NCBI GenBank assembly: GCA_035288405.1
Contig: DATEAK010000379.1
Coordinates: 1-5,553 of the forward strand
Length of the DNA stretch: 5,553 nucleotides
Direction of reading: 5' to 3'
Origin: JACPSX01 sp035288405 [NCBI: bacterium]
GTDB lineage: Bacteria > JACPSX01
Position 1 is the first letter of the stretch. Each line of letters begins with the position of its first letter. Position numbers and translations under genes: made by a program. A model generated the notes under the pieces. That model did no database searches. It saw only the letters and a program-made list of their open reading frames with translations, and had not been told where the DNA came from. Positions 1,193 through 5,553 of the stretch are shown here, one piece after another.

Positions 1193-1969
1193 ATGACGGA
1201 TTGGCGTTATCCTCGCGGAAGTCGGATGCAGGTCTTGAAGGGGCAGCGCAGCAGACTCGGTTTCCTGCTGGCTCCCGTTGCGGCACTGGCTGTCATTACT
1301 GTGGGGATTGTCGGCGTTCGTCAGGTGCAGAAGTTCCTGTTGACTGCGCGGATCTTTCAGGTTCGTCAGGTGTTGATCAGCGGCAACCAGCAGGTACCCG
1401 GCGCGCAGATTGTGCGGATGATGAACCTCTCACCCGGAACCAATCTGTTCAGCGTCGATCTGCAGAAAGCCGGAGAAAGGATCCGCGGGATTCGCTGGAT
1501 CCGCGAGGTGACTCTTCATCGCCAGCTTCCGGATACACTGCGGGTAAACGTTCGGGAAAGGACGCCATTTGCGGTGGTGGGGTCCCAGTCACGCTTGCTG
1601 GTGGATCAAGAGGGGGTTGTTCTCGAAGAGGATGTTCCTGAGGATCGCTATCGGCTTCCCGTACTGGAGGGCGTCGGCAAAATCCGCCAGACCTCGGATG
1701 GGAAGATCGAGGGAGAGGAGTTCCGTCTCGGGTTGAGTGTCCTGGCGGAAATCCAAGGGACAAAACTTGTGGAGGAGCCTTTTGTGGTGAAGCTGGAGCC
1801 TCACAATCGGGTCGTGCTGAGAGTGGAGGGGAAACCTGAGCTCAGGCTTCAGGCGCCGGCCATCACGGAACAGCTAAAACGGCTGCGGTCTCTGCAGGAC
1901 TTTTGGCGTGAAAAGCCCGGCCGGGAGTATATCGACCTGACGTTTGCCAACATGGTGGTGGTCAAATGA
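1193..1969 (+). CDS. ftsQ: Cell division protein FtsQ/DivIB
   Basis: FtsQ is a bitopic inner-membrane divisome protein that recruits FtsB and FtsL and connects the cytoplasmic ring to septal wall synthesis. The 258 residues have the expected order. A short basic cytoplasmic tail (1-22) is followed by one hydrophobic membrane helix (about 23-42, rich in Leu, Ala, Val and Ile). A POTRA domain follows (about 54-121), beginning FQVRQVLISGN and ending LRVNVRERTPFA. The beta-rich FtsQ domain comes next (about 122-255), with LLVDQEGVVL (135-144) and the closing strand YIDLTFANMVVVK (246-258), matching the usual end of the family. Length is normal and no defect is seen. The start follows AGAGGG at good spacing, 3 bases after murB. 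The stop TGA overlaps an ATG that is in frame with ftsA (ATGA at 1966-1969). Recognition is from domain order and position, because FtsQ sequence is poorly conserved. Confidence 0.93.
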   Translation: MTDWRYPRGSRMQVLKGQRSRLGFLLAPVAALAVITVGIVGVRQVQKFLLTARIFQVRQVLISGNQQVPGAQIVRMMNLSPGTNLFSVDLQKAGERIRGIRWIREVTLHRQLPDTLRVNVRERTPFAVVGSQSRLLVDQEGVVLEEDVPEDRYRLPVLEGVGKIRQTSDGKIEGEEFRLGLSVLAEIQGTKLVEEPFVVKLEPHNRVVLRVEGKPELRLQAPAITEQLKRLRSLQDFWREKPGREYIDLTFANMVVVK

Positions 1970-1979
1970 AGATGAGAAG

Positions 1980-1987
1980 GGAGGTGA
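1980..1987 (+). promoter_or_regulatory. Perfect Shine-Dalgarno sequence deciding the ftsA start
   Basis: GGAGGTGA is an exact 8-base complement of the usual 16S rRNA tail. Its GGAGG core ends 8 bases before the ATG at 1993. It lies downstream of the alternative ATGs at 1966 and 1972, so it cannot serve them. It therefore places the ftsA start at 1993. Confidence 0.85.
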
Positions 1988-1992
1988 AACGG

Positions 1993-3225
1993 ATGGGGCG
2001 TAAGAGGGAGAATGTGGTTGGACTCGACATCGGCACGACCAAAATCGCTGCGATCGTCGGGGAGTACGGGGATGACGGCCAAATCAACATCGTTGGGATC
2101 GGATCTCACCCTTCGCGAGGGCTCCGCAAGGGAGTTGTGGTGAATATTGAGAGCACGGTGGAGTCGGTTCGCCGCGCTGTGGAGGAAGCGGAGCTCATGG
2201 CCGGGATCAAAATTCACTCGGCCTATGTCGGGATTGCCGGCGGGCACATTCGAGGCTTCAACAGCCACGGGATCATCGCCATCAAGACCAAAGAGGTGAC
2301 CCCTGCAGACATCGACCGGGTGGTGGATGCGGCCAAGGCGATAGCCATCCCCCTGGATCGGGAAGTGATCCACGTACTCCCGCAGGAGTACATCGTTGAT
2401 GATCAGGACGGGATTCGTGATCCTCTAGGAATGTCCGGAGTCAGACTGGAAGGCAAGGTGCATATCGTCACGGCTGCGGTTACCTCGGCTCAGAACGTGG
2501 TGAAGAGCGTGAACCGGGCCGGCCTGGAGGTTGAGGACATCGCCTTGGAGCAGTTGGCCAGCAGCGAGGCGGTCCTGACTCCCGACGAGAAGGAGCTGGG
2601 GGTCTGCCTGGTGGATATCGGCGGCGGCACCAGCGACCTCGCCATCTTTGCCCAGGGCTGCATTCGTCACACCGCGGTTCTGTCCTTGGGCGGCAATCAC
2701 GTGACCAATGATATCGCCGTGGGACTGAGAACGCCGACACACGAAGCGGAAAAGATCAAGAAGAAGTACGGCTGCGCGTTGCGGGAGTTGGTCAAGGAAC
2801 AGGAAACCATCGAGGTTCCCAGTGTGGGGGGACGCGAGCCTCGTGTCCTTTCCCGGCAGCTTCTGAGCGAGATCATCGAACCCAGGATGGAAGAGATTTT
2901 CACTCTCATTCAGAGGGAAATCATCACCAGCGGGTTTGCGGATCTGATTAGTTCGGGAGTCGTGTTGACGGGTGGAGCGACGATTATGGATGGAGTACCG
3001 GAGCTCGCCGAGCGCGTGATGCACCTGCCTGTACGGCGCGGAATTCCCGCTGGGGTCGGAGGGCTGGTGGACGTGGTGAGCAGCCCCCTGTACGCCACGG
3101 GCGTCGGCCTTCTCTTCTACGGAAGACGATGCCAGCTCCAGGGACGCAATCGCCAGCTCAATGGCCATAACAAGTTCGATAAAGTGTTGAGCCGTATGAA
3201 AACATGGTTCGGAGATTTTTTCTAA
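1993..3225 (+). CDS. ftsA: Cell division protein FtsA, actin-like membrane anchor of the Z-ring
   Basis: FtsA is an actin-family ATPase that binds the FtsZ C-terminal peptide and holds the Z-ring on the inner membrane. From the ATG at 1993 it has 410 residues, normal for the family. Visible parts are phosphate-1 motif GLDIGTTK (10-17); the FtsA-specific 1C (SHS2) region (about 75-160), including HVLPQEYIVDDQ (127-138) and GVRLEGKVHIVTA; phosphate-2 motif VDIGGGTSDL (207-216); adenosine motif VVLTGGATIMDGVPEL (323-338); a polar linker; and a C-terminal amphipathic helix (395-410, KVLSRMKTWFGDFF at its end), the membrane-targeting sequence. The frame is also open from an ATG at 1966 that overlaps the ftsQ stop and would add MKMRREVKR, but that codon lacks a good ribosome site. 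The next gene, ftsZ, is its direct partner and begins 30 bases downstream. No broken motif is seen. Confidence 0.98.
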   Translation: MGRKRENVVGLDIGTTKIAAIVGEYGDDGQINIVGIGSHPSRGLRKGVVVNIESTVESVRRAVEEAELMAGIKIHSAYVGIAGGHIRGFNSHGIIAIKTKEVTPADIDRVVDAAKAIAIPLDREVIHVLPQEYIVDDQDGIRDPLGMSGVRLEGKVHIVTAAVTSAQNVVKSVNRAGLEVEDIALEQLASSEAVLTPDEKELGVCLVDIGGGTSDLAIFAQGCIRHTAVLSLGGNHVTNDIAVGLRTPTHEAEKIKKKYGCALRELVKEQETIEVPSVGGREPRVLSRQLLSEIIEPRMEEIFTLIQREIITSGFADLISSGVVLTGGATIMDGVPELAERVMHLPVRRGIPAGVGGLVDVVSSPLYATGVGLLFYGRRCQLQGRNRQLNGHNKFDKVLSRMKTWFGDFF

Positions 3226-3251
3226 TGGCGCAGTTCAAAAAGGAGGCGTGA
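3225..3251 (+). other. Possible 8-codon mini-ORF coupling ftsA and ftsZ
   Basis: The ftsA stop and an ATG overlap as TAATG. This ATG opens a frame of 8 codons (MAQFKKEA) ending in TGA, 4 bases before the ftsZ ATG. The frame runs through the ftsZ AGGAGG site. GGAG at 3211-3214 is 10 bases upstream and could support initiation. It could be chance; nothing shows that it is translated. Confidence 0.2.
3241..3246 (+). promoter_or_regulatory. Ribosome binding site for ftsZ
   Basis: AGGAGG (extended AAGGAGG from 3240) ends 9 bases before the ATG at 3256. It is a strong independent site, consistent with the high FtsZ level cells need relative to FtsA and FtsQ. Confidence 0.85.
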
Positions 3252-3255
3252 CTCT

Positions 3256-4398
3256 ATGTTTGAATTTCACGAGGAGCACGACCGGTCTGCCCGGATCGTG
3301 GTGGTGGGGATAGGCGGCGGCGGGGGCAACGCGGTCAACACCATGATCGTAGCCGGACTCAGCGGGGTCGATTTTATCGCTGCCAACACGGATGCCCAAG
3401 CCTTGAAGATTTCCCAGGCCCCGATCATCCTGCAACTGGGAGGGGAGCTCACCCGTGGCCTGGGCGCCGGGGCGGATCCGGAGGTAGGACGCAAGGCGGC
3501 CCTGGAGGATGCGGATAAGATCGCCGATCTTCTGCAAGGCGCCGATATGGTTTTCATCACCGGAGGGATGGGAGGGGGAACCGCCACCGGGGCTGCGCCC
3601 ATCATCGCTCAGATTGCCAGGGAGCAAAGATCTCTGACCGTAGCGGTGGTCACCAAGCCCTTTCTCTTCGAAGGGAAAAAGCGTATGACCCGGGCGGAAG
3701 AGGGGGTGCGGGAGCTGCGCAACGCCGTGGATACGCTGATCACGATTCCAAACCAGCGATTGCTCAATGTGGTGGGCCGCCAGACTCCTCTCACGGAGGC
3801 GTTTCGCACCGCGGACGATGTTCTGCGTCAGGCGGTCCAGGGGATCTCGGATCTCATTACGGTGCCCGGGCTCATCAACTTGGATTTTGCCGATGTGCAG
3901 ACGATCATGGCGGAGATGGGAATGGCCCTCATGGGGAGCGGTGTCGCAAGAGGTGAGAACCGGGCTGTCGAAGCCGCCCAGCGCGCAATTTCGAGTCCTC
4001 TTCTGGAGGAGTCTTCCATCGAAGGGGCCCGGGGAGTTCTCATTAACATCACGGGGGGAACCGATCTCTCCCTTCATGAAGTGACCGAGGCTTCCACTCT
4101 CATCCAGGAAGCGGCTCATGAGGACGCCAACATCATCTTCGGTGCCGTCATCGATCCCACCATGGAGGAGCAGGTGAGGGTCACTGTCATCGCCACGGGC
4201 TTCGGAGTTCCGGAACGCATGAGCCAGACCCCGCCCGAAAAATCCAGGGCGATTTCCGAACGGGACGATCTGGAAATTCCCACCCACATGCGCAGGGTGC
4301 AGGTAAAAAAAGAAGTCAATAGCCGGAATCCCGGAATCGTCATGTACGATGATGAAGAGCTGGACATCCCCACGTTCTTGAGGCGGCGTCCGGATTAA
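3256..4398 (+). CDS. ftsZ: Cell division GTPase FtsZ
   Basis: FtsZ is the tubulin homologue that polymerises with GTP into the cytoplasmic Z-ring. The 380 residues fit the family. Seen in order: glycine-rich loop [14 protein letters not shown] (15-28); [11 protein letters not shown] (40-50); [18 protein letters not shown] (65-82); nucleotide signature [13 protein letters not shown] (103-115); [13 protein letters not shown] (132-144); IPNQRLL (164-170); T7 loop NLDFADV (208-214), with Asp210 and Asp213 aligning with the catalytic aspartates; GTPase C-domain to about 318; a short linker; and the conserved terminal peptide [12 protein letters not shown] (369-380) that binds FtsA. Two oddities stand out. 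Residue 110 is Ala, where the signature GGGTGTG has a near-invariant Gly. [11 protein letters not shown] (337-347) also resembles the terminal peptide 30 residues later. The ATG follows AGGAGG by 9 bases. The protein otherwise looks fully functional. Confidence 0.98.
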
Positions 4399-4488
4399 GA
4401 GAGCAGGGAAGCGATCAGCGGTGGAGGGCAAGTCGGATTGAGATCTCAGAGCTGAAAGCTGATACGTACTGCTTGGGGCAAAACAGCA
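4399..4488 (+). other. Intergenic gap ftsZ to next gene, with palindrome and weak promoter-like pair
   Basis: This 90-base gap is the longest in the window. It holds a perfect 10-base palindrome, TGAGATCTCA (4439-4448), followed by a small AGCT-GAA-AGCT inverted repeat (4450-4460). I see no GC-rich hairpin with a T-run, so no rho-independent terminator is supported. TTGAGA (4438-4443) and GATACG (4461-4466) are 17 bases apart and resemble a -35/-10 pair, but only the -35 is good and the -10 matches poorly. A separate promoter for the next gene is therefore possible but unproven. Confidence 0.3.
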
Positions 4489-5553
4489 ATGAATCTGCTT
4501 GCCCTGATCTTTCCTAAGAGTCAGGACGGAACGAGCGCCGACCGTGAGTGGAAACGGTTTCAATCGAGTCTCAGGGTCCCGAAAGGTTGGCAAGTATGCG
4601 GGCAGGGGGTCTCCGATCCTCCACACCCGGGCTTCATTCCGGAAATTGGATCCCCCGCGATTCTTCTCTTTTGCGCCCGGTCCGAAGTGGATTTCCCTTT
4701 CGTCGTCCGGATCCTGGTTCTCCTTGGGCTGGACGGCGGAGAGGGGAAGCGCCGGCGCAACTTTCCCTGGATTCTTACCTATCTCAAAGATCCAGGGGTG
4801 AATCCGGAGCCCCTGGCCTCTTTTGTGGACGGATTTCTCCTGGACGAGCCGCAGAAAATTCTTCCCCGTATTTGCTTCGCTTTCTCCCGAGAGCGAAAAT
4901 TCTGGACGTCGCGGGCGGCGGCGATGATTCCCGGGTTGTATGCGCCCCGAAACTATCCTGTCGAATATACTCCCGCCGGCGTGATTCAGAGGATCAAGCC
5001 GCGCTCTCCCTTTTCTCAACCGAAGTCCTATCCTTGCCGTTTGCCGGCAGCCTGGTGGAGCCGCCACTTTCCCGGCAAGACGACCGGCGGGACAGTGGTG
5101 CGCGCGAAGAATGCAATTCTGTGGCCCCTCGCAGGCAGTGCGAAGCTTCGCCGGCTTCTGGGCCGACCTCCCGAGGAGGAACAGTACCTGTCTCAAGTGC
5201 CGGTTCTGCTTCAGCGCGGGGCGGAAAACTTCACTCTTCACTTCTTCGTGGGACTGCCGGGAGAAGGAGAGGAGGATCGGGAGGGGATTCTCCGTCTCGT
5301 GAAGCGTTTCAGGCATGCAGTGATCCGGTTCTGCCGTCCCGTTCCTTTTCATGGCTTGATTACTGTGGACCTGGTCAGTTTCTCGCCGAAGCCTTTCACC
5401 CCTCTGCAGTGGGAAGGCATGTTCCCGCTTGCATCCCTCCAACTCCTGATGAAGACCGTGGTCTCCAGACTAAGAGAAGTCCCCGGGGTCCAGGTGGTTC
5501 ATGATCTGCCGAAGTGGGCCTTCCTCTACGGAATGTTGGCCCGGGGAGATCGG
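4489..5553 (+). CDS. Radical SAM family-derived protein lacking the cluster-binding motif (partial, 3' end outside)
   Basis: The frame from the ATG at 4489 is open for 355 codons to the last base, without a stop. Family landmarks of B12-binding-domain radical SAM proteins appear in order. An N-terminal Rossmann-like part (about 55-118) includes SPAILLFCARSEVDFPFVVRI (55-75) and NPEPLASFVDGFLL (105-118). Then come IPGLYAPRNYPVEY (147-160); AGSAKLRRLLG (215-225), matching the usual EAGSERLR; NFTLHFFVGLPGEGEEDREGI (247-267); SFSPKPFTPLQWE (297-309); and PGVQVVHDLPKWAFLYGMLARGDR (332-355). The radical SAM CxxxCxxC motif is absent: the five cysteines (37, 62, 129, 183, 282) are scattered. Only about 108 residues separate IPGLY from GLPGE, roughly half of what I recall for full-length relatives, so the first barrel strands seem deleted. 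The GEGEE motif is DEPQK (119-123). The start follows only a weak GGGG site, but it is the first ATG after an in-frame TGA at 4453. Catalysis by the normal radical mechanism is unlikely; the function is unknown. Confidence 0.82.
   Translation, partial: MNLLALIFPKSQDGTSADREWKRFQSSLRVPKGWQVCGQGVSDPPHPGFIPEIGSPAILLFCARSEVDFPFVVRILVLLGLDGGEGKRRRNFPWILTYLKDPGVNPEPLASFVDGFLLDEPQKILPRICFAFSRERKFWTSRAAAMIPGLYAPRNYPVEYTPAGVIQRIKPRSPFSQPKSYPCRLPAAWWSRHFPGKTTGGTVVRAKNAILWPLAGSAKLRRLLGRPPEEEQYLSQVPVLLQRGAENFTLHFFVGLPGEGEEDREGILRLVKRFRHAVIRFCRPVPFHGLITVDLVSFSPKPFTPLQWEGMFPLASLQLLMKTVVSRLREVPGVQVVHDLPKWAFLYGMLARGDR

What the first reader, a model, noticed from the sequence alone, without database searches (positions are those of the whole stretch)
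4489..5553. A cluster-less radical SAM derivative directly downstream of ftsZ
The open frame keeps landmarks from the N-terminal region and from the second half of the barrel of a B12-binding-like radical SAM family (NPEPLASFVDGF, IPGLYAP, AGSAKLRR, FVGLPGE, SFSPKPFTPLQWE, HDLPKWA). It lacks any CxxxCxxC and appears to have lost about 100 residues where the cluster loop and first barrel strands should be. The frame stays intact for 355 codons with normal-looking composition, which argues for a protein kept under selection rather than a fresh pseudogene. The degenerate GEGEE motif also suggests long divergence. A retained non-catalytic radical SAM scaffold beside ftsZ could be a structural or regulatory partner in division, but that role is speculation. 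The family identity is from memory of motifs.
Basis: partly seen in the sequence, partly recalled or inferred. Interest (0 to 1): 0.72.

Follow-up and report, generated by a model that had tools for sequence, protein, structure and literature searches.

The report
Division-linked enzyme missing its catalytic core
Next to the cell-division gene ftsZ, one little-known bacterial lineage keeps a shortened relative of a radical SAM enzyme that has lost the part needed for its chemistry but is still preserved by selection, which suggests that the protein does a job that is not catalysis.

Summary
Window 4489-5553 (+), open at the window edge, encodes a TIGR03960-like radical SAM derivative directly after ftsZ. 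It has no CxxxCxxC in any frame and is about 97 residues short where cluster loop and first barrel strands belong. A second genome (L001, Candidatus Tectomicrobia MAG) carries the same truncated protein: 74% identity, 426 aa, no motif, between ftsZ and yggS. Between the two, dN/dS is 0.22 (bootstrap 0.16-0.30) and indels are in frame, so assembly error and recent decay are unlikely. Of 51 homologue loci read (best-scoring matches), 50 have CxxxCxxC and one is cut by a contig end; 20 of 37 short homologues lie downstream of ftsZ. The derivative thus descends from a widespread, often ftsZ-linked catalytic family. The C-terminal half is under stronger constraint than the rest, although both halves are at the divergent end of the family. 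Best reading: a pseudoenzyme kept for binding, not chemistry. A division role rests on gene position and on the QueE precedent, which is itself mixed. No usable fold model was obtained.

The parts
3256..4398 (+). ftsZ
   Evidence: TIGR00065 439.8 bits, E 8e-132
4489..5553 (+). cluster-less radical SAM derivative, 355 codons, open at the window end (426 aa in L001)
4516..4650 (+). N-terminal stretch that stands where the family has its conserved YPNxYxVGMSNLGFQ...CERVFLP segment; of 15 conserved columns before the retained N part 2 are kept, both in the first 9 residues
   Evidence: alignments; motif as in the consensus
4651..5013 (+). retained later part of the N-terminal domain (Radical_SAM_N2), with NPEPLAxFVDGFLL and PGLYxPRNYxVEYTPxG; the family's GG pair is changed
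   Evidence: 15 of 22 conserved columns kept in the window, 16 of 22 in L001; PF19864 35.0 bits in L001
5014..5112 (+). deletion zone: 33 residues stand for about 130; CxxxCxxC loop and barrel strands 1-3 absent
   Evidence: strand numbers inferred from the match of the catalytic profile to RimO/TM_1862
5041..5076 (+). LPAAWWxRHFPG, a motif at the deletion junction shared by window and L001
   Evidence: alignment A1
5113..5553 (+). retained second barrel half and start of the C-terminal domain (SAKLRR, GLPGE, SFSPKPFTPLQWE, HDLPKWA, LARGDR)
   Evidence: 20 of 27 conserved columns kept in the window, 18 of 27 in L001; dN/dS 0.102/0.813

Best explanation
This is a retained non-catalytic derivative (pseudoenzyme) of a widespread, often ftsZ-linked TIGR03960-like radical SAM enzyme. 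Shown by sequence: the [4Fe-4S]/AdoMet-binding front of the barrel (CxxxCxxC and, by inference, strands 1-3) and a conserved N-terminal segment are gone in both genomes where the derivative was found; the rest is under purifying selection, most strongly in the C-terminal half. Inferred: without a cluster it cannot cleave AdoMet reductively, so it works by binding, through the second barrel half and the C-terminal domain. Inferred from position only: the partner is probably of the division or peptidoglycan machinery made from the same gene cluster, much as a catalytically dead QueE still acts on division in E. coli.
For: Same truncated protein in L001, 74% identity, same place after ftsZ. dN/dS 0.156/0.716 = 0.22, bootstrap 0.158-0.297 from 300 resamplings; the other five frames contain stops in both sequences. 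Indels are 3 codons and 1 codon. C part dN/dS 0.13 against 0.28 for the N part and 0.38 for the deletion zone. Stem of the derivative pair in a C-part tree is 1.22, against 0.96-1.22 for the four longest-stemmed catalytic pairs and single end branches up to 1.86; with the N part added it is 1.93, the longest branch. Homologue loci: 46 of 47 and 4 of 4 later ones carry CxxxCxxC; the exception is cut by its contig end. ftsZ upstream on the same strand within about 6 kb in 20 of 37 short homologues. No second gene of this family was found in G001; the other hits read look like MiaB and RimO by eye. Precedent: QueE R27A is dead for Q synthesis yet still modulates septation (PMC11142719, passages; PMC4974570, passages).
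Against: Only two genomes, both drafts, carry the derivative. Its dN/dS is about three times that of ftsZ (0.075). It is at the divergent end of the family in both retained parts: mean identity to the 37 homologues is below all 37 members in the N part (both sequences), and in the C part below all 37 (L001) or all but 2 (window). It keeps fewer conserved columns than the typical member: window 0.68 (N) and 0.74 (C), L001 0.73 and 0.67, against family medians of 0.955 and 0.897 and lowest members of 0.696 and 0.733. Near-invariant E216, K228 and Y253 (L001 numbering) are changed. Both structure models were poor (mean pLDDT 38.4 and 44.9). 17 of 37 short homologues, and the nearest by path in the C-part tree (L037, L106, L036, L107), are not beside ftsZ. 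The QueE analogy is mixed: C31A and C35A, changes of two cluster cysteines, removed filamentation but not Q synthesis, so cluster cysteines matter for QueE's division effect.
Confidence: 0.62

Rival explanations
1. Gene in slow decay: the catalytic core was deleted and the rest is drifting, held open for now by chance or by translational coupling in the operon.
For: Long stem (1.93) with the N part included; dN/dS about three times that of ftsZ; loss in the N-terminal segment as well, and fewer conserved columns kept than in typical members in both parts.
Against: dN/dS 0.22 with bootstrap maximum 0.318, in-frame indels only, C-part branch within the range of catalytic relatives, C-terminal tail keeps 6 of 6 conserved columns in L001.
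Confidence: 0.14
2. Remodelled enzyme or ligand-binding protein: the shortened protein uses a new site (for instance around the conserved LPAAWWxRHFPG junction) for different chemistry or small-molecule sensing.
For: The junction motif is shared by both sequences although its surroundings are the part with the highest dN/dS; one cysteine there is conserved (183 in the window, 185 in L001).
Against: No ligand evidence; the motif was not searched for elsewhere; two sequences are few for calling a motif.
Confidence: 0.13
3. Split enzyme: strands 1-3 with the cluster are supplied in trans by another polypeptide, so the complex is still catalytic.
For: The C half keeps GLPGE, which lies on the active-site side in radical SAM barrels (recalled).
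Against: Profile A2 over G001 gave, besides the gene itself, three places: two look like MiaB and RimO by eye, the third (C44, E 0.008) was not read. Completeness of the genome is not known.
Confidence: 0.06
4. Assembly deletion or chimera in the window.
For: No genome is held for the window, so its source could not be checked.
Against: L001, at 78% nucleotide identity over the gene, has the same deletion with substitutions on both sides.
Confidence: 0.01

Closest known systems
TIGR03960 (rSAM_fuse_unch), B12-binding-like radical SAM proteins, short unfused form
   Same: Homologous over 359 columns; same C-terminal domain; same ftsZ-linked slot as 20 of 37 short relatives
   Different: No CxxxCxxC, no strands 1-3, N-terminal segment replaced, 426 instead of 539-611 aa (open frames); far below the family cut-off
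QueE of Escherichia coli (radical SAM enzyme that moonlights at the divisome; PMC4974570, PMC11142719)
   Same: Radical SAM scaffold; catalytic activity is dispensable for its division effect (passages read)
   Different: QueE keeps its cluster and enzymatic role, and two of its cluster cysteines are needed for filamentation; different radical SAM family and not encoded beside ftsZ (recalled)
RimO/TM_1862 (PDB 4jc0, 2qgq)
   Same: Among the six solved sequences that match the catalytic profile, second and third after 9ccb; weak fold match of the low-confidence model, 124 columns, E 0.03
   Different: Complete barrel with cluster, different function

Membership tests
TIGR03960 radical SAM proteins | score at or above the curated cut-off (462.3 bits) | tested here: not met
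   window 82.1 bits, full-length L001 123.3 bits. The cut-off alone does not decide: of four catalytic homologues scanned, L038 (492.1) and L028 (609.6) pass, L010 (437.5) and L013 (302.3) do not
TIGR03960 radical SAM proteins | common ancestry over N- and C-terminal parts | tested here: met
   hhalign probability 100, E 2.2e-58, 359 columns
Radical SAM superfamily | CxxxCxxC ligands of the [4Fe-4S] cluster | tested here: not met
   absent in all frames in window and L001
Radical SAM superfamily | Pfam PF04055 match over the barrel | tested here: not met
   15.7 bits against cut-off 29.5, profile 112-166 of 166 only; no match listed for L001 at E <= 0.1
Radical SAM superfamily | reductive cleavage of AdoMet | not testable with these tools
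   needs purified protein
PF19864 Radical_SAM_N2 | score over gathering cut-off 29 | tested here: inconclusive
   window 26.3, L001 35.0; both match only the latter two thirds of the model
ftsZ-linked short TIGR03960 homologues | gene downstream of ftsZ on the same strand, with yggS-proC beyond | tested here: met
   window after ftsZ (what follows is outside the window); L001 ftsA-ftsZ-gene-yggS-proC-yggT-divIVA-mtnA; in L054, L058, L059, L068 and L071 the homologue also precedes yggS and proC
Moonlighting division regulator like QueE | localises to or acts on the divisome | not testable with these tools
   no experiment available

The most novel reading that the evidence does not exclude
A deep bacterial lineage turned an ftsZ-linked radical SAM enzyme into a dedicated non-enzymatic division or cell-wall factor, which implies that catalytic members in many other lineages also have a division-related binding role besides their unknown chemistry.
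Probability: 0.23. Interest if true: 0.8.

Novelty: new variant of a known kind. Interest (0 to 1): 0.5.

Why it matters
Radical SAM enzymes are usually defined by their cluster. A selected, cluster-free remnant in the division cluster gives a natural deletion experiment: what survives marks the part of a widespread, often ftsZ-linked family, for which my paper searches found no study, that is needed without catalysis. It makes a concrete prediction, a binding function in the second barrel half and C-terminal domain, that can be tested on tractable catalytic relatives.

Tried and rejected
Assembly artefact: rejected by the shared deletion in L001. Pseudogene: disfavoured by dN/dS and in-frame indels. 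Hidden cysteine motif in another frame: none. Catalytic paralogue or split piece elsewhere in G001: none found, with completeness unknown and one weak place (C44) not read. Co-loss of pgeF, which lies between the homologue and yggS in five relatives: rejected, since G001 has it on another contig. The 735-aa antisense ORF 3235-5442: over the gene region its frame shows dN/dS 1.10, with 1 stop in the window and 3 in L001, so it is not taken as a gene. More cluster-less relatives: searches of 98, 386 and 386 partly overlapping genomes and small phylum sets list only G001 itself with a full-length match (the match list was cut at its weak end). Structure: two AlphaFold jobs with 2 and 5 sequences were poor; one Foldseek search had no match at E <= 0.001, its RimO match has E 0.03, and it is given little weight. 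G032:C321, first thought to be the missing front of L006, proved to belong to the other TIGR03960-type gene (by eye). Rfam: no match at gathering scores in window or L001. No promoter or terminator pattern in 4300-4600. Literature: ten narrow word searches of the open-licence library; I read passages of two papers and saw only listings of the others. None listed was recognisably about TIGR03960, an ftsZ-linked radical SAM gene of this family, or a cluster-less radical SAM derivative; subscription papers and preprints were not searched.

Full report
What is there. The window carries murB (224-1189), a ftsQ-like gene (1193-1969; 39.6 bits, under the models' cut-offs), ftsA (1966-3225) and ftsZ (3256-4398), then an open frame from 4489 to the window's end. 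Its translation matches TIGR03960 at 82.1 bits in two stretches, far below the cut-off of 462.3, and Pfam Radical_SAM_N2 and Radical_SAM below their cut-offs. No CxxxCxxC codon pattern occurs in any frame of the region.

A second genome has it. One pattern scan of the species-genome collection with this protein, a search that reaches close relatives only, found 17 candidate stretches of which one encodes a relative: L001, a Candidatus Tectomicrobia groundwater MAG, 74% identical over residues 1-355. There the frame from the matching ATG is 426 aa (1881-3161), in the order ftsA, ftsZ, this gene, yggS, proC, yggT, divIVA, mtnA. It lacks the motif too. Its genome is the only one held in its phylum. 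The deletion is therefore not an assembly fault of the window.

Selection. Over 354 codons dN is 0.156 and dS 0.716 (ratio 0.22); ftsZ gives 0.042/0.552 and the overlapping 209 codons of ftsA 0.029/0.659 (NG86). Indels are of whole codons (three and one). The bootstrap range (300 resamplings) is 0.158-0.297 and the maximum 0.318. Of the other five frames, four have ratios above 1 and the fifth (-2) 0.31; all five contain stops in both sequences. By part, the ratio is 0.28 (alignment codons 1-170), 0.38 (171-215, about the deletion zone) and 0.13 (the C-terminal part).

What the ancestor was. In 386 relatives' genomes, 46 have a match at E <= 1e-24; only G001, the genome of L001, matches over the full length. 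Loci were handed out for the best-scoring matches only. Of the 47 homologue loci so obtained have an in-frame CxxxCxxC; L006 starts at a contig end beyond the loop. Four more found also have it. Of 37 short homologues (open frames of 539-611 aa), 20 have ftsZ upstream on the same strand within the fetched flank of about 6 kb (13 of 17, 7 of 20). In L054, L058, L059, L068 and L071 yggS and proC follow, and a Cu-oxidase_4 (pgeF-type) gene lies between the homologue and yggS in all five. In L001 that gene is elsewhere in the genome. The derivative thus sits in the slot of a catalytic family, although 17 of the 37, and the four later ones, show no ftsZ nearby.

What was lost and kept. Where the homologues have 125-137 residues between the end of the retained N-terminal part and the fourth barrel strand, the derivative has 33. 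hhalign aligns the remaining parts on both sides. From the match of the catalytic profile to TM_1862/RimO the lost zone holds the cluster loop and strands 1-3; this strand numbering is an inference. Of columns conserved in at least 80% of the 37, the window keeps 2 of 15 before the retained N part, 15 of 22 in it, 3 of 19 in the lost zone (placement there is unsure) and 20 of 27 in the C part; L001 keeps 2, 16, 2 and 18, and 6 of 6 in the tail beyond the window. The invariant GG pair of the N part is changed.

Results that speak less clearly. In a leave-one-out comparison the median catalytic member keeps 0.955 (N) and 0.897 (C) of such columns and the lowest 0.696 and 0.733; the window keeps 0.68 and 0.74, L001 0.73 and 0.67. 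Mean identity to the 37 is 0.267 (window) and 0.287 (L001) in the N part, where members average 0.387 among themselves, and 0.338 and 0.326 in the C part (members 0.399); no member is lower in the N part, none is lower than L001 and two are lower than the window in the C part. So both retained parts are at the divergent end of the family; the shortfall is larger in the N part.

Rates. In a tree of the C part the stem of the derivative pair is 1.22 (plus 0.19 shared with L040 in a weakly supported fork), beside 0.96-1.22 for the four longest-stemmed catalytic pairs and end branches up to 1.86. With the N part included the stem is 1.93, the longest branch. The C part is thus fast but within the family's range. 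The place of the derivative among the homologues is not resolved in either tree; the nearest rows by path in the C-part tree are L037, L106, L036 and L107, which are not beside ftsZ.

Mechanism. Without cluster ligands and half of the barrel, AdoMet radical chemistry is very unlikely (established knowledge of the superfamily). Selection is strongest on the second barrel half and the C-terminal domain, which suggests binding of a partner that the catalytic family also binds. No catalytic copy was found in G001: profile A2 gave the gene itself and three other places, two of which look like MiaB and RimO by eye, the third not read. A division role is suggested by position and by E. coli QueE, where a catalytically dead mutant (R27A) still localises with FtsZ and modulates septation (PMC11142719, passages; PMC4974570, passages). 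The same paper's C31A and C35A mutants, at two cluster cysteines, lost filamentation but made Q-tRNA, so that precedent does not show that a cysteine-free protein can do it. A division role is not demonstrated here.

Structure. Two predictions were of low confidence. In the second, residues 231-300 and 321-340 of L001 had ten-residue means of 59-80 and showed alternating strands and helices. A Foldseek search had no match at E <= 0.001; RimO was second at E 0.03 over 124 columns. This is weak.

Verdict. The family link is right but formal membership fails. The division role stays a hypothesis.

Noticed in passing
L102 2869-4830, L103 2848-4863, L105 2833-4014: Contigs of the viral collection encode relatives of this radical SAM family (654 and 672 aa, one shorter frame) with CVHGCRFC; L102 and L105 also carry frames that look like ParB-type proteins (by eye).
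   Followed up: no
window 3235-5442 (-): A 735-aa antisense open frame spans ftsZ and the derivative; over the derivative its frame shows dN/dS 1.10 against L001, where it has 3 stops.
   Followed up: partly
G001:C287:18810-19496: The pgeF-type gene (PF02578), found between the radical SAM gene and yggS in five relatives, lies on another contig in the genome of L001.
   Followed up: partly
window 4399-4488; L001 1807-1880: The ftsZ-derivative intergenic region has short AGCTGA/GATCAGC-like repeats in both genomes (by eye).
   Followed up: no
window 5041-5076: The junction motif LPAAWWxRHFPG is conserved in both genomes although its surroundings have the highest dN/dS of the protein.
   Followed up: partly
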